A stretch of DNA of 39,942 nucleotides from an uncultured Prevotellaceae bacterium (lineage in GTDB: Bacteria > Bacteroidota > Bacteroidia > Bacteroidales > Muribaculaceae), in assembly GCA_900318065.1 (NCBI GenBank), contig ONIY01000030.1, positions 1 through 39,942 of the forward strand, in the 5' to 3' direction. Positions 14,774 through 28,042 of this stretch are shown here, piece by piece (position 1 is the first letter of the stretch; each line of letters begins with the position of its first letter). Under the pieces are notes generated by a model that was given only the letters and a program-made list of their open reading frames with translations, was not told the DNA's origin and searched no databases. A program made the position numbers and the translations under genes.

Positions 14774-17140
14774 CTATTGCTTACGCACTGGTCTCACACT
14801 GTAGCCTTTGTAGCGACTGCCACTACTTGAAGAGTTGGTGGTAACACTCAAGATCCATGCAAGAATACAATTAGATGTATAAAGATCTCGTGTCCAGTAG
14901 TAACCGCTGACGCCATTTACCACAAGATTGTCTCCGTCGTAGTGGCCAGCAGTGGGCATAAACAGAGTAGAACCATTATGCTTGCTGGTAAACAGCCTGC
15001 CATTGACACCGTTGAGTGTTGTCCGCTCTATTATGCATTCGTTGCACAGCTCTTCTACTTGGTCATGGGACGGCATTTGCCACTCGGCGCCCCAATTCTG
15101 GGTGGCAGCGTCATCTTCGGTGTCAAGCACTACCTTGTTGTCCTGAATGCCCAAGGCGCTGTTAGTGCTATATTTTGTCAATGAAGAATTTGTGCCATTG
15201 CACCAACGGTAATTGCCCCAAGAGTAGGTGCTTTTGGGTGACGTCTCGCCCCAAGCGAAGTAGTTGCCAAAGCCCTCGGGACTTGTCGCGCCAACGTTGG
15301 TCGTTGCCCACAACGTGCCTGAGGGAAGCCCCAAGTCCACATAGGTGTGTTCTACAGGCTCGTTGCTGCCCAGGAGGATGCTGTAGACAGCCGTTACGTC
15401 GCCCGATGTGATATTGCCGTCGCCATCCTGGTCGCCGTTGACGATTGAGCTGTAATCGTTGCTCAGCAGCACTCCATAGAGTGCGGTTATGTCGGCCGAA
15501 GTGACGTCACCGTCGCCATTGACATCGCCTGCAACAACCGCCCTTTTCAGTCTAAGGTCGCAGTCGAAGTAGGCTCCACCCCAGTTTTGCTGCATATAGA
15601 TAGCCAAGACATTCTCTCCTACCGTGAAAGCCGAGGCTGGAATGACGAATGAGTCATAAGAATTGTCCCAGGTGCTGGCGTTAGCAGTCCATCCCTCGGC
15701 ATTTATCACCTGCTGGCCATTGACATATACCACCATATTGTCGTCGTGAACGCAATGAAGGATGAAACTGTCGCCTGTATTCACTCTCTCGAGATTGAAG
15801 GTGCGGCGCATCCAGTAGCAGTTGTACTCACCATACCAGTGGGAATTATATTGCAATAAATAGAATGGGCCATTGCTGTGGTCGGGACTTGCAGTGGGTA
15901 AAGCCAGGTCAATCCAGTCACTGTCGTCATAGTCTACCTCGTTCCATCCTGCAGGCGGCGATGGCCAGGTGCCATCACTGCCGAGTGATGCGTGAAGTGC
16001 CTTGACGTAATAAGGTGCTAACCTCTGGCCGTTGTAGAGTAACATGGTTTCATGCTCATTGATTCCACATCCTGCGCACACGCCATCGGTATAATTGTGA
16101 CTTGTGCTTGGCTCGATGAGCTCGGTGCGTGAGACGTTGCACTTGTTGCATTTCATCACTCTCACCTGTGGATATCCGCAGCTATTGTCTTGTGTAGAGA
16201 CCTCAGTCCATGAGTCGTGCGATTCTTCATTGATCCACACCTCGCTAAGTTGCACAACATTACCAGCTCCCTGTGTACATGTGAACTTGAAGAAGCTGAA
16301 CTTGCGAGTGTCATTAATTTTTATCACAACCTCGGCTTGATCCTCAAAGGGCATCGGGAAATCGTTGCGCACATCAATGTCTTCCCAGTTGACATTATCA
16401 TTCGAGCCCTGCAGTTTCCAGCTACGCAAAGAGCGCCCGTAGTATTGGCGAGTGTCACCGGTGGTGACAATGCTGTACTGACCCACAGCCACATCATCGC
16501 TCGACTTTATGGTGACCCAGCAGTTGGAGGCATTGCCATAATATTTCGTCAAGGCATTGTCGTCACACAGGTTGCTGGCAGTTTCATCGTCGGTCAATGC
16601 TTCACCACCTTCAACATAACTATACCCCACTCCATTGGTGTCATGTCGTGTCCATGTGATGGCGGGGTCAACGCTGAACGGTGCCATGGGCCAGGGGGAG
16701 ATGTCAATGTATCTCATCGTGCCATACTGGTCGGTGTAGGCATGCATGAACAAGTAGTAGGTCGAGAGATAATCATATCTCAGGTTGAAATAGGTCTCAT
16801 CTTGGTATTCAACATGGATGTACTCACCGTCATCAACATCGGCATTGGCAGCATGAAAAGTTCCAAGTCCAAGATACAGTCCTAACCCCTTATTATAAAC
16901 ACGATAACCGCTTTCCTCATCACCCACAAAGCACCAAATGTGATAGTCGTTGGCGGCACTTGGTGAACTTATGAAGTCGGTTTCGAAACCATCGCCTGTG
17001 GCAATCAAGTAGAAACCATCGCTCTTGATAAAATACCATGAGGTGTTTATGAGCGCGGGATCGCTGGTGGGCGTAAATGGCAAAGCGTGAGCAACTGCTG
17101 TACCCAAAAACAAAGCAAGTATAAAAATAATTTTTTTCAT
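14774..17140 (-). CDS. Large secreted multidomain protein: F5/8-type and galactose-binding-like domains, dockerin-like module, FISUMP domain
   Basis: 788 residues. 1-19 signal peptide. 30-160 is a domain shared with the 17228-18148 product (WYF/YIKxxGxYLxxT, WCFV, IYNK, YIDxxPWP). 185-303 is an F5/8 type C (discoidin)-like domain (LTKYYGNASNCWVTI, GRSLRSWKLQGSNDNVNWED). 331-360 has four CxxC cysteines (CNKC, CAGC). 440-532 is a galactose-binding-like domain (FILHCVHDDNMVVYVNGQQV). 536-592 is a dockerin-like module with two Ca loops. 598-788 is a FISUMP domain (YVDLGLPSGTLWATTNVGA, GYSVRPVRKQ). The dockerin-like module is internal, which is unusual. No catalytic domain is seen, so adhesion or glycan binding is likely. 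Confidence 0.88.
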   Translation of the reverse strand: MKKIIFILALFLGTAVAHALPFTPTSDPALINTSWYFIKSDGFYLIATGDGFETDFISSPSAANDYHIWCFVGDEESGYRVYNKGLGLYLGLGTFHAANADVDDGEYIHVEYQDETYFNLRYDYLSTYYLFMHAYTDQYGTMRYIDISPWPMAPFSVDPAITWTRHDTNGVGYSYVEGGEALTDDETASNLCDDNALTKYYGNASNCWVTIKSSDDVAVGQYSIVTTGDTRQYYGRSLRSWKLQGSNDNVNWEDIDVRNDFPMPFEDQAEVVIKINDTRKFSFFKFTCTQGAGNVVQLSEVWINEESHDSWTEVSTQDNSCGYPQVRVMKCNKCNVSRTELIEPSTSHNYTDGVCAGCGINEHETMLLYNGQRLAPYYVKALHASLGSDGTWPSPPAGWNEVDYDDSDWIDLALPTASPDHSNGPFYLLQYNSHWYGEYNCYWMRRTFNLERVNTGDSFILHCVHDDNMVVYVNGQQVINAEGWTANASTWDNSYDSFVIPASAFTVGENVLAIYMQQNWGGAYFDCDLRLKRAVVAGDVNGDGDVTSADITALYGVLLSNDYSSIVNGDQDGDGNITSGDVTAVYSILLGSNEPVEHTYVDLGLPSGTLWATTNVGATSPEGFGNYFAWGETSPKSTYSWGNYRWCNGTNSSLTKYSTNSALGIQDNKVVLDTEDDAATQNWGAEWQMPSHDQVEELCNECIIERTTLNGVNGRLFTSKHNGSTLFMPTAGHYDGDNLVVNGVSGYYWTRDLYTSNCILAWILSVTTNSSSSGSRYKGYSVRPVRKQ

Positions 17141-17227
17141 ATAATTTTAAATTTCAGAAATATAGGTACTACAAGAATATAAACAAAAAATGAGTCAACA
17201 GTTCTCTTCAGAGCAGATGTCATAGTT

Positions 17228-18148
17228 TTATTTACTTCCCAGCAGGAAATTGTAGACCGATGTGACATCGGCAGCGGTGATGTCTCCGTCTCCGTTCTGG
17301 TCACCGTTGACGATAGCGCTGTCGTCGTTGTTGAGCAGCAAGTTGTAGATCGCTGTCACGTCGGCCGACGTCACATTGCCATCGCCATTCACGTCGCCAG
17401 GCACATTTGCCAGAGCAGGAATCACGTAGGTCTTGGTTGCGACAAGTTCCCTGATTCTGGGATTGGCGCTAAATGTCACGTGTGCTTCGGCTTCGAGTGT
17501 CTGCGCTTGACTGGTGCGCTGAACCGAGTAAGAATTTCCTCCCACAAGTTGCCCATTGACATAGAGAAAATACTCACATCCATACACATTGTTAATCACA
17601 TCATATCCAAAAGTGCAGTGGTCGGCATATACCTCAAGGTCGGAAAAAACAATCTCTGCCCCTGAATCGATATAGTCTTCTACCAATGCTTCGATAGCGA
17701 TGACCGGGTGTTCTGGCCATGATGTGATGTCGAAACCACTACCATCGCCATAGTCGATATACCATTTCTCGCCGGCATCATTATAGCAGATGTAGAAACT
17801 GTTTCCGCTTCCCTCTTCAACATAGTTGTTTGAATTGCTGTAGTAGGGATTTAGAAAGTAGCCTTTGTACATGTACTGTTTTTGTGCCTTGTTGTAGATA
17901 TAAATCTTTCCAGAGTTTGTGGCTACGAAACACCACAGTGACCAGTCGTAGTAGTCACTCTCAGTGTCAATTTCTGTGATACCCGAAACAGTCCCACCCG
18001 ATGTGCCTAAAAGGTAAACTCCATTGATTTTCAAGTAATACCAGTGGATGGGATAGGTGGTTGCACCGGGTGTGGTCACAAATGGCAGCGCCTGTGCGGT
18101 TAGCAAGCAGAATAAGGCCAAAACAATAAAAGATAGAAATTTCTTCAT
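17228..18148 (-). CDS. Secreted protein with dockerin-like C-terminus
   Basis: 306 residues from the ATG at 18148; a TTG 27 nt upstream in frame is less likely because MKKFLSFIVLALFCLLTAQA is a normal signal peptide. Residues 35-150 match the N-terminal domain of the 14774-17140 product (WYYLKINGVYLLGT, WCFVATNSGKIYIYNK, DITSWPEHP). A middle beta-rich region (about 165-245) is unassigned. Residues 250-304 are a dockerin-like module with two Ca loops (DVNGDGNVTSAD, DQNGDGDITAAD). Its promoter region faces an AraC-type regulator across a 220-nt divergent gap with direct repeats, so it is the likely target of that regulator. Confidence 0.82.
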   Translation of the reverse strand: MKKFLSFIVLALFCLLTAQALPFVTTPGATTYPIHWYYLKINGVYLLGTSGGTVSGITEIDTESDYYDWSLWCFVATNSGKIYIYNKAQKQYMYKGYFLNPYYSNSNNYVEEGSGNSFYICYNDAGEKWYIDYGDGSGFDITSWPEHPVIAIEALVEDYIDSGAEIVFSDLEVYADHCTFGYDVINNVYGCEYFLYVNGQLVGGNSYSVQRTSQAQTLEAEAHVTFSANPRIRELVATKTYVIPALANVPGDVNGDGNVTSADVTAIYNLLLNNDDSAIVNGDQNGDGDITAADVTSVYNFLLGSK

Positions 18149-18190
18149 ATTTTTTAGTTTAAAGTTATTATTCAAAGTCTTTTAAACATT

Positions 18191-22332: not shown

Positions 22333-22385
22333 GAACTAACTCGAAATATGTAAGAGGTTTTTATTCAAACTATTAAGAACGAGAA

Positions 22386-22416
22386 TGTCCTCAAATGAAC
22401 TGAGCATTTGAGGACA
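22386..22416. terminator. Hairpin between the convergent uvrA and Hsp70-like genes
   Basis: A perfect 12-bp inverted repeat (22386-22397 and 22405-22416, arms TGTCCTCAAATG/CATTTGAGGACA, loop 7 nt) lies in the 119-nt convergent gap. Neither strand has a long T-run after the stem, so it may terminate poorly or act only to protect 3' ends. It also marks the point where base composition drops. Confidence 0.55.
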
Positions 22417-22451
22417 AAATAAGAAATAATTGCATTCTTTTAATAAAACGA

Positions 22452-23696
22452 TTATTTTAGTGTATCCCAATCACTGTATAAACTTAATTTGTCTCCAGAA
22501 TCAAATACTTTATGTGAACTATTATTTTGCACTCTCAGCTTGGCAAAAATTTCACTTAGAGGCTTCATGACAATGTCATCATTGGTTGCACTCACTGATA
22601 AACCATATGCAGTTGCAAGGATAGGGCATAATTTTTTATCTGTAATGTCATCAAACTCTTCTATCGCTGAACCATTCCACTGACGTTCAGAAATAAGTAT
22701 GATGTCTACATATGCATCGTATGGGTTCCGAAGAGAATTAAATGTGCTACCTCCTCCACTATAAATAAGTGGTCTTTTTTTCAGAGATTGTTTTAGTTTC
22801 CAAGATTGCACATCTGTTTCTTCCAGATTTTTAAACAATTCTGTACGGATAATACCACAAACATGTTTAATGTCTTTCATGAAAAAAAACTTTCTTTTTT
22901 GATCAATCTTTGCTGTCTTTGCTAGATTTGAGTGTATTCCTGAATGTCTGACTTCGTCTGCATGTGTAAGAAAGTTTAATCCTTTATTCAAGGAATAGAA
23001 AGCATAAACTTGAGGTTTATTGTTTTCAATTGTAAAGAATGATATGTCTGTAGTACCGCCTCCAATGTCAATCATTAAATTCATGCCGGATTCCAACTTG
23101 CCTTGACTAATTAATGGCATAAGACAAGCATATGCTTCAGGAAATACTAACAAACCGTAATTGTTTTTTGTCTCGATACTATATGGAACGATTACTGTCA
23201 TTTCTACCAGTTCTTTCATGGTTGTGGATAGAAACCGTTGTTTATCATTTTTAAAAACGTCCTCTACTAACCGGTATGCAGATGACACGATTCTCGTAGT
23301 TATTTCTTTTGCCTGCTCTACATGACTGCTATCAGTGGGCGCTCCCATTTGAATAGCAAATTGCTGTCCATATTTTTTTTCTAAATCAAAAATAATGAAA
23401 GCAATATACCATGCAGAAAAATACCATGCATTAATTTGAGGCATTATATATGAAGCATTCGCATCAAAAGCACTCTGTTTAAAGTACTTAACTATTCTGC
23501 CATCAAAATCTCGATTCAAGAAACCATAGTGCATAAGGCCTTTCTTATCAACACCTACAACAGATGGCAGCGTGTAAAATTCACTGTGATATGTATCTTC
23601 AAATTTCATAAAAGAGTAGTTTATTTCTACTCCTTCACTATCCTCAATACAAACCTTAGTTTGATGAGTACCAAAATCAAGTCCAACAGTAATCAT
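22452..23696 (-). CDS. Hsp70/actin-fold ATPase without substrate-binding domain, partner of the SNF2-like helicase
   Basis: 414 residues forming one nucleotide-binding domain of the Hsp70/actin/sugar-kinase superfamily. Phosphate 1 loop: VGLDFGTHQTKVC (D7). Connect 1 region: FPEAYAC (E187). Phosphate 2 loop: LMIDIGGGTTDISFF (D210, G212-T215). Adenosine loop: LIYSGGGSTFNSL (GGG 314-316). The Hsp70 substrate-binding domain and lid (normally about 250 more residues) are absent, so it is not a DnaK-type chaperone. There is no signal peptide or membrane segment. The start codon is separated from the helicase stop by one nucleotide (TGA-T-ATG), so the two are translationally coupled and probably act together. 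Base composition is AT-rich, unlike uvrA next door. Function unknown; a regulatory ATPase of a defence or DNA-processing complex is inference. Confidence 0.85.
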   Translation of the reverse strand: MITVGLDFGTHQTKVCIEDSEGVEINYSFMKFEDTYHSEFYTLPSVVGVDKKGLMHYGFLNRDFDGRIVKYFKQSAFDANASYIMPQINAWYFSAWYIAFIIFDLEKKYGQQFAIQMGAPTDSSHVEQAKEITTRIVSSAYRLVEDVFKNDKQRFLSTTMKELVEMTVIVPYSIETKNNYGLLVFPEAYACLMPLISQGKLESGMNLMIDIGGGTTDISFFTIENNKPQVYAFYSLNKGLNFLTHADEVRHSGIHSNLAKTAKIDQKRKFFFMKDIKHVCGIIRTELFKNLEETDVQSWKLKQSLKKRPLIYSGGGSTFNSLRNPYDAYVDIILISERQWNGSAIEEFDDITDKKLCPILATAYGLSVSATNDDIVMKPLSEIFAKLRVQNNSSHKVFDSGDKLSLYSDWDTLK

Positions 23697-23697
23697 A

Positions 23698-26600
23698 TCA
23701 GATTATATTTACAAGATTTAAAGATACAATACTCTTTGATATATCTATAAGAGTAGATTCTTCTAATTGTTCAAGTCGGGTATCTCGTTCGGACTCCAAT
23801 CTTCTGATATTTTCTTCTGTCATGTGAATAAGCCTAAGCATTTGATTTGCTCTTTTCTCATCACTAGCCATTAGCCATTCTACTTCAACTTTCCATGCAT
23901 TGATATTCTGTTGCAAGTTATCAATACGGCAACGATAATAATCTTTAGTTTGATGAACTGTTCGTTGATTATCTCCTACGATTTGTAAAAGTAGTTCGTT
24001 CTTTCTTTTATCTATTATATTATCAACTGCTTCAGTAAAATCAAAACGCATATCCTGGATGAGCTCCATATTCATCCCTTCATTAAGTGCATTGCATTCT
24101 TTTCCGTCTATTTGAGAACGAGAAAAAATATGTTCGACAAGATCTTCGTCTTTAACAACTTTCCTGTTGTTTATGTCATATAAGATTGGTAGTAAAGTTT
24201 CTGTGAACTTAGGAACACCGTGTACTTTATTGGCAACACGAACTTTATAAATAATAAGATAGTAAAGCTTATCTTTTTCAAGTTGCTCGTCTTCTGTTAG
24301 TGCATAGCAGAATGATGTACTTGACTTATCTTCTTGACTTAAATAATACTGATGGCAAGCCTGGATGATAGGATGATATAAATTCAAAAAATAAACTTTG
24401 CTGTTCGTATATGCAGTGTCTTGGTCAAAAGTAATACGAATTGAAGTTTGCCCTTCTATATCTCTTCTAAACATATTGAAAGCAGCAGCTGCTTCTTCAT
24501 CCAAAGGTTGATTTTCATACAGGAAGTTTTGTAATAATTTAGGGTTACTTAAAGGTAACTGCAACTCATAAATGTGTTCATCTAATTGATTAAGTGTACA
24601 TGTTGGCAATTTTTGTTTTATCGCCATAACTAAATAATTGCACAACTCTTTTTCTGTAACATATGCGTTATTGTTTTGGATTCGGCTAATTTGCTCTTTG
24701 AAGTATGCATCATTGGTAAGAGCGTTATTTAAACCCTCATCAAGACGTTCTATTGTTTCTTTCTCGTTTGCTATTGCAATTTCAATATCTTTAATTTTCC
24801 TATATTTTTCTTCTTTTGTCAATTGTGTTGTATATAATTCTTTTTCAAGACTATTATATACGTCTTGTATTGTTATTTTACTTCCTTTCGTGAAAGGGGC
24901 ATCAAGGATGGCTTCCATGTCGCCAATCGCACTTTTGAAGATGCCAATTCGCTCTAATAAACGTATATAAATATCTTCTTGAATAGAATCTTCTACAATA
25001 ATATTGTAAATATTTACTTTGGGCGATTTCTGACCAAAACGATCAATACGACCTATACGTTGTTCAACAACCATTGGATTCCAAGGAAGATCATAATTTA
25101 CCATAGAGTTACAAAACTGCATGTCTAGACCTTCGCTGCCTACTTCGGAAGAAAGAAGAATGTGTGCATCAGGATTATTCTTGAAATCATCAAGAATTTC
25201 AGAGCGATTATGTATTTGTCCATGTATCATTAATGCGCCATAACCTCGCTTTTTAAGTCTTATTTGTAAATATTTCAATGTGCGACGGAAAAGAGCAAAG
25301 ACAATAATTTTCTTCGTCCCATTCTCAAAAACTTGAGTAATAATTCTAATAAGTGCATCAAATTTTGCATCTGAATAGTCTTGATATTCATCAATCCCTC
25401 TGTTTAATGATTCTTCTGAGTTTAGGTATGCAAAAACACTACTGGCAACCTGACGTTTCTTTTGTACAAGACCTAATGCACCGCCTTGTGTGAGGTGTTC
25501 TTCTCCCCAGTAATCGGTGTATGAATTATCGTCATAATACTCCTCTATTACCTTCTCAAATTCTTCCCTTTCCTTTGGTTTGAGCTTTACTTTACACAAG
25601 TGAGGCACACGTTCTGCCTGAGATAAATCTTTTATAACCTCACGTTTTCTTGTCCTTGAGAATATATTGTTCATCATGCTCATTGATGAAATCAAGCCTT
25701 GAAGTCTTACACGTGCTTTAGGTGTATCTTCTTCATGTAACATGCGTTGGATTTCTTGGTACATTGCATTTTCAGAAAAAATCTTGTCTGCCGTACTTTC
25801 AAAGCGGTATTCTCTTCTATTAATGGTGAAGCCGATATTAACGGATGAATTTTCAAGTTCTCTTGATATATAATCGAATGGTTTGTGGTTGTTTATGCCA
25901 CTTAATGCTTCAATAAAAGGTCGATTCTCTTGAAGGCGGTTTTCAAAAATCTGATAATTATAAAAACGAGTATTATCAAGTAAATGCATCAAATTATATA
26001 AGTCCTCGTAGCGAATCATTACTGGTGTAGCAGTAAGAAAAATTGCTGCATCAGCTCGACTTGTTATGATTCTAGCCCCTTTATATGTTTGTGTGCCGCT
26101 ATTGCGCATTCTATGTGCTTCATCGCACAACACCAAACTAAAATTGAAATTATGCTCTTTAAGATAATCAACTATATTGTTGGGTTCAGTATTATCATTT
26201 GATTTCGTCTGTATATCTCTGATTTTCTCGTAATTAATTATTGCATGTATAGAAACTCTTTGTTCTTTCATGTCCTGCAACAAGTCCTTTTGAGTTTCAT
26301 AAATTTTGAATTTGAGGCCAAATTTGTTAGCAAGTTCTTCTCTCCATTTGTTTTGAAGAGATTTTGGACATATTATAAGAACGTTTGATAATTCTTGCCT
26401 TGCTTTTAACTCAAGCATGATATGACCTGCTTCTATAGTTTTACCTAAACCAACTTCGTCAGCAATGAGTAATCGTCGATTAGGCGAATTTAGAAACTTC
26501 AGCAATGGTTTGAATTGATATGCTCGAAAGAGTGTCTTTGAGGATTTGAGAGAAGATATTGTGCTATTATTTGATGTGCCAATTTTAAAAGATGTGTTCT

Positions 26601-26826
26601 TCTTTGCGTATTCATTATATGAACCAAAGATACCTGCAGCACATCTGTCAAAGGGGTCATAAATCTCTTGATCAGCTTTAAGTTTGTTTTCAAACTCATC
26701 TGATGTTATATCACCAAACTGCACAACATATATGTTGCCACGTCGTGAAGACCTCACACTTGTAATAATTCCATGTTGAGTGGAGCCTATTTTTATAACC
26801 TTATCTCCAATGTTGAATTTGCCCAT
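23698..26826 (-). CDS. RapA/SNF2-type DEAH helicase (superfamily 2), candidate defence helicase
   Basis: 1042 residues. 1-40 is a small beta-barrel-like start (FNIGDKVIKIGSTQHGIITS). The SF2 core has motif I ADEVGLGKTIEAG (K129), motif II LCDEAHRMRN (DEAH 235-238), motif III LTATPV (264-269), motif V SSEVGSEGLD (559-568), and motif VI QRIGRIDRFGQ (589-599). These match SNF2/RapA (HepA) ATPases, which translocate on double-stranded DNA. The 440-residue tail (650-1042) has coiled-coil stretches (RKIKDIEIAIANEKETIERL, and a final one near RLESERDTRLEQLEES). It shows no nuclease or methylase motif that I can recognise. First gene of a two-gene unit with the Hsp70-like ATPase. AT-rich, suggesting transfer. 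It differs from true RapA in its N- and C-terminal parts. Confidence 0.9.
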   Translation of the reverse strand: MGKFNIGDKVIKIGSTQHGIITSVRSSRRGNIYVVQFGDITSDEFENKLKADQEIYDPFDRCAAGIFGSYNEYAKKNTSFKIGTSNNSTISSLKSSKTLFRAYQFKPLLKFLNSPNRRLLIADEVGLGKTIEAGHIMLELKARQELSNVLIICPKSLQNKWREELANKFGLKFKIYETQKDLLQDMKEQRVSIHAIINYEKIRDIQTKSNDNTEPNNIVDYLKEHNFNFSLVLCDEAHRMRNSGTQTYKGARIITSRADAAIFLTATPVMIRYEDLYNLMHLLDNTRFYNYQIFENRLQENRPFIEALSGINNHKPFDYISRELENSSVNIGFTINRREYRFESTADKIFSENAMYQEIQRMLHEEDTPKARVRLQGLISSMSMMNNIFSRTRKREVIKDLSQAERVPHLCKVKLKPKEREEFEKVIEEYYDDNSYTDYWGEEHLTQGGALGLVQKKRQVASSVFAYLNSEESLNRGIDEYQDYSDAKFDALIRIITQVFENGTKKIIVFALFRRTLKYLQIRLKKRGYGALMIHGQIHNRSEILDDFKNNPDAHILLSSEVGSEGLDMQFCNSMVNYDLPWNPMVVEQRIGRIDRFGQKSPKVNIYNIIVEDSIQEDIYIRLLERIGIFKSAIGDMEAILDAPFTKGSKITIQDVYNSLEKELYTTQLTKEEKYRKIKDIEIAIANEKETIERLDEGLNNALTNDAYFKEQISRIQNNNAYVTEKELCNYLVMAIKQKLPTCTLNQLDEHIYELQLPLSNPKLLQNFLYENQPLDEEAAAAFNMFRRDIEGQTSIRITFDQDTAYTNSKVYFLNLYHPIIQACHQYYLSQEDKSSTSFCYALTEDEQLEKDKLYYLIIYKVRVANKVHGVPKFTETLLPILYDINNRKVVKDEDLVEHIFSRSQIDGKECNALNEGMNMELIQDMRFDFTEAVDNIIDKRKNELLLQIVGDNQRTVHQTKDYYRCRIDNLQQNINAWKVEVEWLMASDEKRANQMLRLIHMTEENIRRLESERDTRLEQLEESTLIDISKSIVSLNLVNII

Positions 26827-27126
26827 AGTTGTAATTCTTTATCAGTCCTGGGTATCTAGTATGTTTTGATGTTCACGAAATTTTATACCTTTTTCTATGC
26901 CACTATTCCCATATGTTTCAAAATAAGTTGAGAATAATCGTTGTGTCGTCTATTGGCAAAAGAATATTTTGGAGGCGATGGAGACGCCGCATTTGCAACA
27001 CTACTAATCCTTTTATTAAAAGCAGTATTCTGACTAGTGAAAGAGGATTATGCCCTTTGCTAATCCTTTTTATTGATTCCCCATGTCGGGCATTGTTTTT
27101 TTATGTCCGACAGGGGGAAGGTGTTA
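26827..27126. other. Gene-free AT-rich gap with a long hairpin and direct repeats
   Basis: No convincing gene is seen in these 300 nt. A near-perfect 17-bp inverted repeat (27077-27093 and 27103-27119, two mismatches, loop 9 nt rich in T) stands next to the end of the YARHG gene. A 14-nt direct repeat CTAATCCTTTT(T)ATT occurs at 27004-27017 and 27060-27074. No TAnnTTTG box was found on the minus strand for the helicase gene. Confidence 0.5.
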
Positions 27127-28042
27127 TCACTCATTCTCTTTCATGACCTTTTCCATGTTCTGGATGAGGGCGATGTTGATGCGTTCTATTTCGTTGAGTT
27201 TCAGTGCTGATGCGTTGCTGGTGACTGGGGTGTACCACTCTTGTGCGGCGAAGATTTTGCTGAGGTTGCTGTCTTTGAACTTGTAGCCATGGCGTGCGTA
27301 GATGTCGTTGCGCATGAGTCGCAGTGTCTCGATGTTGTAGCAGCTCAAGTAACCAGCAGGGAGGATTTCCTGAGCGGTGATGGGCCACAGACTGTTGCCG
27401 GTGTAGCGAAAGCCTTCCACTTTGGCGTATTTCACGGAGGTAATCGACTCTACTGCGGGTTCGTCGTCCCAAGAAGCACCGTCGACTGGTTTCACCTCAT
27501 CCAGCTTTATGTTCTGCTTGTCGAAGTCGAACGAATAATGTTTTCCGGTTTTGAGCACCTCGATAATGTTGGTTGGTATGTCAAAGCTAGAAAGGAACTT
27601 GAAATTATCCCATTTGTTTTGTGAAGGAGTTGTCGACATGGCATTGTTACCGTTAAACGCCAGGTATTTGCCCTGTGCATTGTGATACACGCCATCGAGC
27701 TGCTTGTTGAGCTGGTCGATCTGCACATCCTCAAAGCTTGACAGCAACAGTTTTTCTCTCAATAGTAGACCCACTCGCCGACTTTCCAGTCAATGGGATT
27801 ATATCAAAATTTTCGTAGGAAGAGGCAATCACCATTTTGCCGCCTCGTCCTTTCACCACGTTAAACTCATATCCACCCTCGTGGAGCGTGCCTCCCGAGA
27901 AATGCAAGACACCTTTACTCTCTTTCACTTTAAAGAAAGCATAACCGTCGTGCCAGTATGTGCCGTTGATGTTTCCCAGAGAACCTGCCATAGCCTGCAG
28001 GAAGAACAGTGTTGCTGTAATCAGTGATAGAAATCGAATCAT
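27127..28042 (-). pseudogene. YARHG-domain secreted protein, split by a frameshift
   Basis: Two overlapping minus-strand frames make one recognisable protein. The first (28042 to stop at 27731, 103 residues) has signal peptide MIRFLSLITATLFFLQAMAG and a beta-rich N-terminal domain. The second (open from about 27774 to stop 27127; no ATG, only a GTG) carries the rest and a C-terminal YARHG domain (RNDIYARHGYKFKDSNLSKI, EWYTP). They join if one A is removed from the A5 run at about 27762, giving a protein of about 300 residues. A true mutation, an assembly error in the homopolymer, or less likely +1 frameshifting could explain this. It is the last gene of the DUF4293-nhaD operon (28 nt gap). 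YARHG domains are extracellular and of unknown function. Confidence 0.75.

What the first reader, a model, noticed from the sequence alone, without database searches (positions are those of the whole stretch)
22452..26826. Two-gene unit of a RapA/SNF2-type helicase and an Hsp70/actin-fold ATPase lacking a substrate-binding domain
Seen: helicase motifs I, II, III, V and VI, then after a 1-nt gap an ATPase with all three phosphate/adenosine loops but only 414 residues. Known: SNF2-type helicases occur in defence systems such as DISARM (DrmD), and Hsp70-fold proteins without the peptide-binding part act as ATP-dependent switches. Inference: the ATPase regulates or assembles the helicase in an anti-phage or anti-plasmid role. 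I know no named system made of just these two genes, but cannot search.
Basis: partly seen in the sequence, partly recalled or inferred. Interest (0 to 1): 0.78.

Follow-up and report, generated by a model that had tools for sequence, protein, structure and literature searches.

The report
Helicase and bare-Hsp70 defence gene pair
Two neighbouring bacterial genes, a DNA-motor helicase and a stripped-down Hsp70 ATPase, travel together through many bacteria, often near anti-virus genes, and probably form an unnamed defence module, though nobody has tested it yet.

Summary
On the minus strand lie a 1042-aa RapA/DrmD-type SNF2 helicase (23698-26826) and, one base on, a 414-aa bare Hsp70 nucleotide-binding domain (22452-23696). 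Catalytic residues of both are conserved. A scan with an ATPase-only profile gave 50 loci (3 of them the profile's own); the helicase lies directly upstream in 49, and the other contig is cut. The pair also occurs in PLSDB records of Alphaproteobacteria and Cyanobacteria. In the window it looks like an insertion: GC 0.32-0.36 against 0.43-0.57 in adjoining genes, ATPase detected in 3 of 101 genus genomes (own included), absent in 5 of 5 relatives that keep uvrA beside nhaD. Neighbours elsewhere are rich in defence genes (124 neighbours hit 185 PADLOC families, 118 control ORFs hit 3), including type I RM, GmrSD and BREX. In one locus the ATPase is fused to a Septu PtuA. It misses NCBI's cut-offs for DrmD, DpdE and RapA, and my searches of the held papers found no description of the pair. 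Most likely mechanism (inferred): an SNF2 DNA motor gated by an Hsp70-type ATP switch acts against invading DNA, alone or feeding neighbouring effectors. Anti-phage activity and physical binding are untested.

The parts
22452..23696 (-). Hsp70-fold ATPase gene, 414 aa: nucleotide-binding domain (residues 1-372) plus a 42-residue tail; no substrate-binding domain
23649..23687 (-). phosphate-1 loop, VGLDFGTHQTKVC (residues 4-16)
   Evidence: G5, D7, G9, T10, Q12, K14 in 47 of 48 rows, one gap
23478..23480 (-). K73, placed like the catalytic lysine of Hsp70 (equivalence recalled)
   Evidence: 48 of 48 rows
23136..23138 (-). E187, connect-1 glutamate (equivalence to Hsp70 recalled)
   Evidence: 47 of 48 rows
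23046..23072 (-). phosphate-2 loop, IDIGGGTTD (residues 209-217)
   Evidence: D210 and G212 in 47 of 48 rows
22746..22760 (-). adenosine loop, SGGGS (residues 313-317)
   Evidence: GGG in 48 of 48 rows
22455..22472 (-). C-terminal hexapeptide DWDTLK at the end of a low-confidence linker; near-consensus D[WY]D[AT]xK in the 15 sequences of the subclade
   Evidence: residues 392-410 pLDDT under 50
23698..26826 (-). SNF2/RapA/DrmD-type helicase gene, 1042 aa
26434..26460 (-). helicase motif I, DEVGLGKTI (residues 123-131)
   Evidence: GLGKT 48 of 48 rows
26113..26124 (-). helicase motif II, DEAH (residues 235-238)
   Evidence: D and E 48 of 48, H 47 of 48
26023..26034 (-). helicase motif III, TATP (residues 265-268)
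   Evidence: residues 266-268 48 of 48 rows
25129..25140 (-). helicase motif V region, GSEG (residues 563-566)
   Evidence: G563, E565 and G566 48 of 48 rows
25039..25062 (-). helicase motif VI, QRIGRIDR (residues 589-596)
   Evidence: QRIGR and D595 48 of 48 rows
23758..24069 (-). long predicted C-terminal helices of the helicase (residues 920-1023), a possible docking arm
   Evidence: secondary structure of the model; role inferred
22386..22416 (-). terminator-like hairpin (12 pairs) just past the ATPase stop, on the pair's strand
   Evidence: consensus scan; 4 found, 2.3 expected
22333..27126 (.). stretch absent between uvrA and the YARHG/nhaD genes of relatives; low GC over the pair
22437..22454 (+). 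left arm of an 18-nt inverted repeat (17 of 18) that brackets the pair; possible end of the inserted piece
   Evidence: weak
27005..27022 (-). right arm of the same inverted repeat
   Evidence: weak

Best explanation
The pair is a mobile two-protein module, most likely anti-invader. The helicase is a RapA/DrmD-type SNF2 motor that translocates along double-stranded DNA and remodels what it meets there. The partner is a bare Hsp70 nucleotide-binding domain that works as an ATP/ADP switch on the helicase: it has no peptide-binding part, so it would act through its NBD face and a flexible tail with a conserved end peptide. On invading DNA the ATP state of the switch would license or redirect the motor, which strips or blocks phage replication and transcription or hands the DNA to co-encoded effectors (type I RM, GmrSD, BREX, Septu-type PtuAB). 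Shown here: the two genes, intact catalytic residues, near-constant adjacency, patchy spread with an insertion signature, defence-rich company, one fusion of the ATPase to a PtuA. Inferred: physical contact, direction of regulation, DNA as substrate, anti-phage outcome.
For: Helicase directly upstream in 49 of 50 loci from an ATPase-only profile scan, 46 of 47 without the profile's own three. In PLSDB, 7 records match a Shinella ATPase; in 6 the helicase is next to it (Shinella, Leptolyngbya, Cyanobacterium, Aminobacter, Sphingobium fuliginis; Sphingobium CAP-1 from the positions only), and Rippkaea was not judged. Matching divergence of the partners, r = 0.93 over 53 pairs, 0 of 2000 permutations as high. 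Both active sites conserved. Bare NBD fold. RapA-like layout. Patchy presence: 3 of 101 genus and 2 of 295 order genomes, own included. Empty site and GC drop. Defence neighbours: 124 neighbours hit 185 PADLOC families, 118 control ORFs hit 3; RM and GmrSD tallies. BrxC and DUF1819 (one locus) and BrxL (two loci) as neighbours. Hsp70-PtuA fusion, 265.9 bits to PtuA over residues 420-865, followed by an HNH gene.
Against: No experiment. No nuclease or toxin family was found in either window protein, so a stand-alone killing step is not visible. The window locus has no other defence gene among the flanking genes scanned. The correlation of divergence is expected from common descent alone. The neighbour tally counts families, not genes, covered 124 of 166 selected neighbours (loci L054-L089), and the neighbours also include ordinary genes (IMPDH, glycerate kinase, rhamnosidase, one member each). 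Related helicases exist without the Hsp70 partner: of 25 other genomes with a helicase match 11 were opened, 3 with the Hsp70-type gene, 4 with an Hsp90-like one, 4 with neither or not judged. No complex was modelled.
Confidence: 0.6

Rival explanations
1. The pair is an accessory of other defence systems rather than a system: it supplies DNA translocation to neighbouring restriction, BREX or GmrSD operons and does little alone.
For: In several loci it sits within or beside RM, GmrSD or BREX genes; it has no visible nuclease; in G711 it lies between a GmrSD_N-like gene (named from its sequence start) and an LRR_5 gene.
Against: Neighbours vary from locus to locus while the pair alone is constant: after the two pair clusters (50 and 49 loci) the next reaches 6 of 50 loci. 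In the window, L054, L066 and L073 no same-strand ORF of 100 aa or more lies within 500 bases of the pair, apart from the YARHG gene 300 bases upstream in the window.
Confidence: 0.22
2. A RapA-like transcription factor: the helicase recycles RNA polymerase and the Hsp70 domain helps remodel it; a cell function rather than defence.
For: Among solved structures RapA gives the highest Z and the only alignments that run through to the C-terminus among the 50 rows shown.
Against: NCBIfam RapA score 190.4 against a cut-off of 576. Detected in 3 of 101 genomes of the genus, in plasmid records and in defence-rich surroundings.
Confidence: 0.04
3. An abortive-infection device: helicase and Hsp70 domain form a sensor that keeps itself or an effector inactive until phage DNA or a phage protein arrives, then harms the cell.
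For: Hsp70-PtuA fusion with a following HNH gene and an LRR third gene in one subclade fit a sensor that feeds effectors; Hachiman pairs a sensor helicase with a nuclease (PMC12278908, start of abstract in the listing).
Against: No constant effector accompanies the pair; neither window protein shows one.
Confidence: 0.1
4. Cargo that serves the mobile element itself, for example stability or competition between elements, with defence only incidental.
For: Plasmid copies, integrase-like neighbours by eye in three loci, one copy in a viral-contig collection, insertion signature in the window.
Against: Among the 25 commonest neighbour families shown of 139, restriction families dominate and no transfer family appears.
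Confidence: 0.06

Closest known systems
DISARM DrmD (SNF2-like helicase)
   Same: Same helicase family: best PADLOC model PDLC02623 DrmD, 5.6e-119, and 5e-254 for the relative in L036.
   Different: Below the NCBI DISARM_DrmD cut-off (365.7 against 610 bits); no DrmA, DrmB, DrmC or DISARM methylase among the window genes scanned; usual partner is an Hsp70 NBD.
BREX helicase BrxHII and BREX-related Swi2/Snf2 helicases (PMC12839542, passages read)
   Same: RapA-like layout; homology to the PADLOC BrxHI/BrxHII models, 1.2e-60; some relatives of the pair lie beside BREX genes.
   Different: No BREX genes among the window genes scanned; the held main text of that paper has no occurrence of Hsp70, DnaK, ASKHA, chaperone or actin-like.
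RapA, RNA polymerase recycling ATPase
   Different: Below the RapA family cut-off, accessory distribution, paired with an Hsp70 NBD.
CoCoNuT CnuD, Hsp70-like component of McrBC-type systems (PMC11090510, passages and section 10 read)
   Same: Hsp70-like ATPase inside a predicted defence system.
   Different: CnuD carries NBD and SBD, is tied to McrB/McrC, and is described there as having degenerate Walker A-like motifs; here a bare NBD with conserved loops and a SNF2 partner.
Septu PtuA/PtuB
   Same: In L042/L057 (one locus fetched twice) the ATPase is fused to a PtuA-type ATPase and followed by an HNH gene.
   Different: That is the only such fusion among the 48 ATPases of A3 (AAA_21 and similar in 1 member); the Hsp70 part and the helicase are not Septu parts (recalled).
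Hsp70/DnaK nucleotide-binding domain
   Different: No substrate-binding domain or lid; below Pfam HSP70 cut-off.
Eukaryotic SWI/SNF and INO80 remodellers with actin or Arp subunits (recalled)
   Same: An SNF2 motor with an actin/Hsp70-fold ATPase partner.
   Different: No kinship between the accessory subunits was tested; docking in the bacterial pair is unknown.

Membership tests
DISARM | DrmD equivalog by NCBIfam NF038317 cut-off | tested here: not met
   365.7 bits against 610
DISARM | Core genes DrmA, DrmB, DrmC and a methylase alongside | tested here: not met
   None among the 14 window proteins given to Pfam, spanning 11.4-39.4 kb; window genes below 11.4 kb, and some within the span, were not scanned
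BREX | BrxC, PglX and PglZ alongside | tested here: not met
   Absent among the window genes scanned; BREX genes lie beside some relatives of the pair
Dpd | DpdE equivalog cut-off | tested here: not met
   207.9 bits against 500
RapA | RapA equivalog cut-off | tested here: not met
   190.4 bits against 576
RapA | RapA-like domain layout | tested here: met
SNF2 helicase superfamily | SNF2 core with motifs I, II, III, V and VI | tested here: met
Hsp70 | Nucleotide-binding domain fold and loops | tested here: met
Hsp70 | Substrate-binding domain after the NBD | tested here: not met
   Only 42 residues follow residue 372, partly disordered
Hsp70 | Pfam PF00012 gathering score | tested here: not met
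   10.1 bits against 20.6
CoCoNuT (CnuD) | McrB/McrC partners | tested here: not met
   None among the window genes scanned
PADLOC candidate PDC-M61 | ATPase matches model PDC-M61B | tested here: inconclusive
   2e-5, 21.5 bits, residues 196-268 only, for the window; five other ATPases have no PADLOC match at 1e-10, and the PtuA fusion shows no PDC-M61 among its 25 best of 38; no paper with that label found
Shango | TerB-like gene, Shango ATPase and helicase | tested here: inconclusive
   No TerB family among the window genes scanned; SngB and SngC sequences were not compared; system described in PMC10250203 (passages)
Anti-phage defence system | Lowers phage plating when cloned | not testable with these tools
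   Wet experiment needed

The most novel reading that the evidence does not exclude
This is a prokaryotic counterpart of the SNF2 motor plus actin-fold subunit of eukaryotic chromatin remodellers: a bare Hsp70/actin-fold ATPase docks permanently on the long C-terminal helices of a SNF2 translocase, by its NBD and its conserved C-terminal end peptide, and gates DNA translocation as a self/non-self checkpoint. A related helicase branch sits beside an Hsp90-like (sacsin-type) ATPase instead, so defence SNF2 motors may often be run by chaperone-fold ATPases, a class of immune module that my searches did not find described.
Probability: 0.2. Interest if true: 0.88.

Novelty: new variant of a known kind. 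Interest (0 to 1): 0.68.

Why it matters
SNF2 helicases recur in DISARM, BREX and Dpd, but what starts and stops them is poorly known (recalled). Here the motor has a near-constant partner of minimal size, an Hsp70 ATP switch without a substrate domain. Two genes are enough to reconstitute, so how an Hsp70 NBD could control a DNA motor becomes directly testable. If active, it would be an unnamed defence module, frequent among Bacteroidota loci found here and present in plasmid-collection records of two other phyla. PADLOC's models see mainly a DrmD-like helicase in it, and the plasmid records with an annotation there call the ATPase hypothetical.

Tried and rejected
Single-sequence scans with the window ATPase found nothing in genome contigs, viral contigs, plasmids or phages. 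A four-sequence profile (A2) solved this for genome contigs and viral contigs. A Bacteroidota-type ATPase (L034) again found no plasmid copy, whereas a Shinella ATPase found 7 records. The Shinella record is 4.6 Mb long although listed as a plasmid.

Full housekeeping role considered and rejected: 3 of 101 genus and 2 of 295 order genomes carry the ATPase, own included, with the caveat that these used the single window sequence and may miss distant copies.

PDC-M61 considered because of a weak hit; not supported by relatives. Shango considered and left open (see membership test).

A PD-(D/E)xK nuclease in the helicase C-terminal part was looked for only by eye in the list of invariant columns; no such pattern was evident. 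Repeated swapping of Hsp70-like and Hsp90-like partners was considered. On the helicase tree (quick method, long branches flagged by the program) the 7 Hsp90-type rows form one side of a branch (support 72). The 53 Hsp70-type rows need 3 changes, partly because L051 had been labelled 'other' before one search showed that it too has the ATPase. One old split may be enough. The Hsp90 type rests on a Pfam match for L039 and a record annotation for L046; L037, L040, L041, L052 and L053 were judged by a shared motif, L041 from a fragment.

The PLC-like domain in the L097 ATPase proved to be an N-lobe (residues 1-239) joined to unrelated sequence near a contig end and is not used as evidence. Direct repeats at the insertion ends gave at best 9 nt. 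Promoter scan no better than shuffles.

Rows dropped: A3 leaves out L065, L084 (gene split in two ORFs) and L091 (cut); A4 leaves out L064, L080 and L090 (cut or absent). The neighbour set A5 holds 124 of 166 selected ORFs, the control A6 118 of 142 (17 of 18 regions represented), both cut by the 50,000-residue limit. Of the first 10 plasmid helicase hits, 8 were opened (H6 and H8 not): 5 have the Hsp70-type neighbour (in Leptolyngbya upstream of the helicase) and 3 an Hsp90-type one. Of 25 other genomes with a helicase match, 11 were opened: 3 Hsp70-type (G589, G517, G477), 4 Hsp90-like (G664, G435, G507, G501), 4 other or not judged (G562, G459, G529, G503).
Full report
WHAT IS THERE. The two ORFs are as described: 23698-26826(-), 1042 aa, and 22452-23696(-), 414 aa, one base apart. 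A terminator-like hairpin of 12 pairs lies at 22416-22386 on the same strand, just past the second gene (four such sites found, 2.3 expected), which fits a transcription unit that ends there. Upstream, 300 bases separate the helicase from a gene with a YARHG domain on the same strand; downstream is uvrA on the other strand. uvrA and nhaD are named here from their sequences, not from a call.

THE HELICASE. Pfam gives SNF2-rel_dom and Helicase_C. The best PADLOC model is DrmD at 5.6e-119, with other DrmD, BrxHI/BrxHII, HmaA and DpdE models among the next. NCBIfam scores are under the curated cut-offs: DISARM_DrmD 365.7 of 610, DpdE 207.9 of 500, RapA 190.4 of 576. The AlphaFold2 model (pLDDT 80.5) matches E. 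coli RapA with the highest Z, 21.0 over 717 residues spanning 56-1042; chromatin remodellers such as SMARCAD1 are tied on Z (20.2) but cover the SNF2 core only. Long helices fill residues 920-1023. So it is an SNF2 motor of RapA/DrmD layout that belongs to none of the equivalogs tested.

CONSERVATION. Over 48 aligned rows each, ATPase K73 and GGG 314-316 are invariant, and D7, E187 and D210 are kept in 47. Helicase GLGKT, the D and E of DEAH, residues 266-268 of TATP, and QRIGR are invariant, and the H of DEAH is kept in 47 of 48. Both enzymes appear to be under selection to hydrolyse ATP.

RECURRENCE. The three nearest full-length helicase relatives in the phylum search (G589, G517, G477) each have an ATPase next door. 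A profile of four ATPases then found 49 loci in genome contigs and 1 in viral contigs. The helicase is upstream on the same strand, within 25 bases, in 49 of these 50; in L080 the contig begins less than 200 bases before the ATPase ORF. Three of the 50 are the profile's own loci; without them it is 46 of 47. The hosts are mostly Bacteroidota (with Balneola) and one Moraxellaceae MAG contig (titles). A second ATPase subgroup, mostly with N-terminal extensions, occurs in plasmid-collection records of Cyanobacterium, Shinella, Aminobacter and Sphingobium, in G477, and in Leptolyngbya with the ATPase upstream of the helicase. The subgroups are related by profile comparison, probability 99.8, E 6.6e-28. 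Partner divergences correlate at r = 0.93 over 53 pairs; the highest of 2000 permutations was 0.28. Common descent alone would give a correlation, so this shows joint inheritance rather than contact. Not every relative of the helicase has this partner: of 25 other genomes with a helicase match, 11 were opened, 3 with the Hsp70-type gene, 4 with an Hsp90-like gene, 4 other or not judged; of 8 plasmid-collection records opened, 5 and 3.

ACCESSORY AND MOBILE. By the single window sequence, 3 of 101 genomes of the genus and 2 of 295 of the order hold the ATPase, own included. Of 11 relatives fetched around nhaD, 5 keep uvrA beside it and none of these has the pair between; the other 6 show no uvrA there and cannot be judged. 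In G695, 75 bases separate uvrA from the YARHG gene, against 4,794 in the window. GC is 0.32-0.36 across the pair, against 0.49-0.57 over uvrA and 0.43-0.54 from 27.0 to 29.7 kb; windows further out on both sides fall to 0.38-0.39. An 18-nt inverted repeat, 17 of 18, brackets the pair (22437-22454 and 27005-27022) and exceeds all of 200 mononucleotide shuffles. It is not a general feature of other loci: 2 of 43 cases tested, window included, exceeded their shuffles.

COMPANY. Clustering of all ORFs of the 50 loci shows that only the two pair genes are constant (50 and 49 loci); the next clusters reach 6 loci (LRR_5 third gene, WYL-type regulator) and 4 (type I RM-like subunits). Scanned at E 1e-20 against PADLOC, 124 neighbouring ORFs hit 185 families; 118 ORFs from preset positions of six single-contig genomes of the same class hit 3. 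Pfam tallies of the neighbours include GmrSD_N 5, Eco57I 5, N6_Mtase 4, ResIII 4, LRR_5 5 of 124; the 25 of 139 families shown also hold ordinary genes such as IMPDH and glycerate kinase, one each. BREX company is confirmed by annotated relatives: BrxC (65.6% identity) and DUF1819 (the BrxA family; equivalence recalled) in L035/L056, which are one locus, BrxL in L036, and BrxL by Pfam in L099. In L042/L057, one locus, the ATPase continues into a PtuA-type ATPase, 265.9 bits, followed by an HNH gene, with genes that look like type III RM beside it (named from sequence).

A PARALLEL. Seven fetched relatives of the helicase (L037, L039, L040, L041, L046, L052, L053) are followed by a GHKL-type protein instead: Pfam Sacsin for L039, 'molecular chaperone of HSP90 family' in the annotation of L046, and a shared ELLQNAEDA-like motif for the others, by eye. 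On the helicase tree they fall on one side of a branch with support 72. Related SNF2 motors thus appear with either an Hsp70-type or an Hsp90-type ATPase as close neighbour.

MECHANISM. Shown: a conserved two-gene unit, both active sites intact, an insertion signature, defence-rich company. Follows from family knowledge (recalled): SNF2 motors translocate on dsDNA; Hsp70 NBDs are nucleotide-dependent switches. Inferred: that the NBD gates the motor, and that the outcome is restriction of invading DNA. No nuclease is visible in the window pair, so either the motor itself blocks replication or transcription, or an effector elsewhere finishes the job; the PtuA fusion favours a link to effectors at least once.

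KNOWN OR NOT. Searches of the held paper library for the pair and for the PADLOC label gave no paper describing it. The nearest is the CoCoNuT paper, with Hsp70-like CnuD in McrBC systems (PMC11090510: passages, section 10). The 2026 BREX survey (PMC12839542) has no occurrence of Hsp70, DnaK, ASKHA, chaperone or actin-like in its held main text. A preprint on YprA helicases (PMC12458937, one passage) and the HEPN survey (PMC3710099, passages) did not describe it in what I saw. Most subscription papers are not held and supplements were not searchable, so a description could exist there. I rate it a new variant of a known kind, SNF2-helicase defence modules, with a partner that I did not find described in that role.

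Noticed in passing
window 27127-28042: The YARHG-domain gene upstream of the pair lies in two frames here but is one 327-aa gene in relative L124; a broken gene or an assembly slip next to the insertion.
   Followed up: partly
window 22437-22454 and 27005-27022: 18-nt inverted repeat (17 of 18) brackets the two genes; possible ends of the inserted piece, no transposase seen.
   Followed up: partly
L042:6703-9339 and L057:3404-6040 (same locus): Hsp70 NBD fused to a Septu PtuA-type ATPase, followed by an HNH gene and type III RM-like genes; a possible Hsp70-controlled Septu.
   Followed up: partly
L064, L065, L068, L069, L072, L076 and L156:10270-11727: One subclade has a third gene, mostly a few bases after the ATPase, with BspA-type leucine-rich repeats where scanned one by one (L068, L076, L156); possibly a sensor subunit.
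   Followed up: partly
L037, L039, L040, L041, L046, L052, L053: Relatives of the helicase are followed by Hsp90/sacsin-like GHKL proteins instead of the Hsp70 NBD.
   Followed up: partly
L055:5141-8815, L059:11794-15501, L092:2244-6761: A RecD-like helicase of 1224-1505 aa recurs beside the pair; PADLOC PDC-S68 models match three neighbours, of which L055 and L059 may be two. A similar protein start follows the Hsp90-type pair in L039.
   Followed up: partly
L097:9995-11575: ATPase N-lobe (residues 1-239) joined to a zinc-dependent phospholipase C-like domain near a contig end; probably a chimera or decayed copy.
   Followed up: yes
L103: The pair occurs on a contig of the viral collection, with three regulator-like genes of the WYL-type cluster upstream of it.
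   Followed up: no
window 14774-18175: Two proteins with dockerin type I domains.
   Followed up: no
L038:3645-5162: A DnaK-like 505-aa protein (by eye) lies a few kb from a diverged SNF2 helicase in G562; a possible separate association.
   Followed up: no
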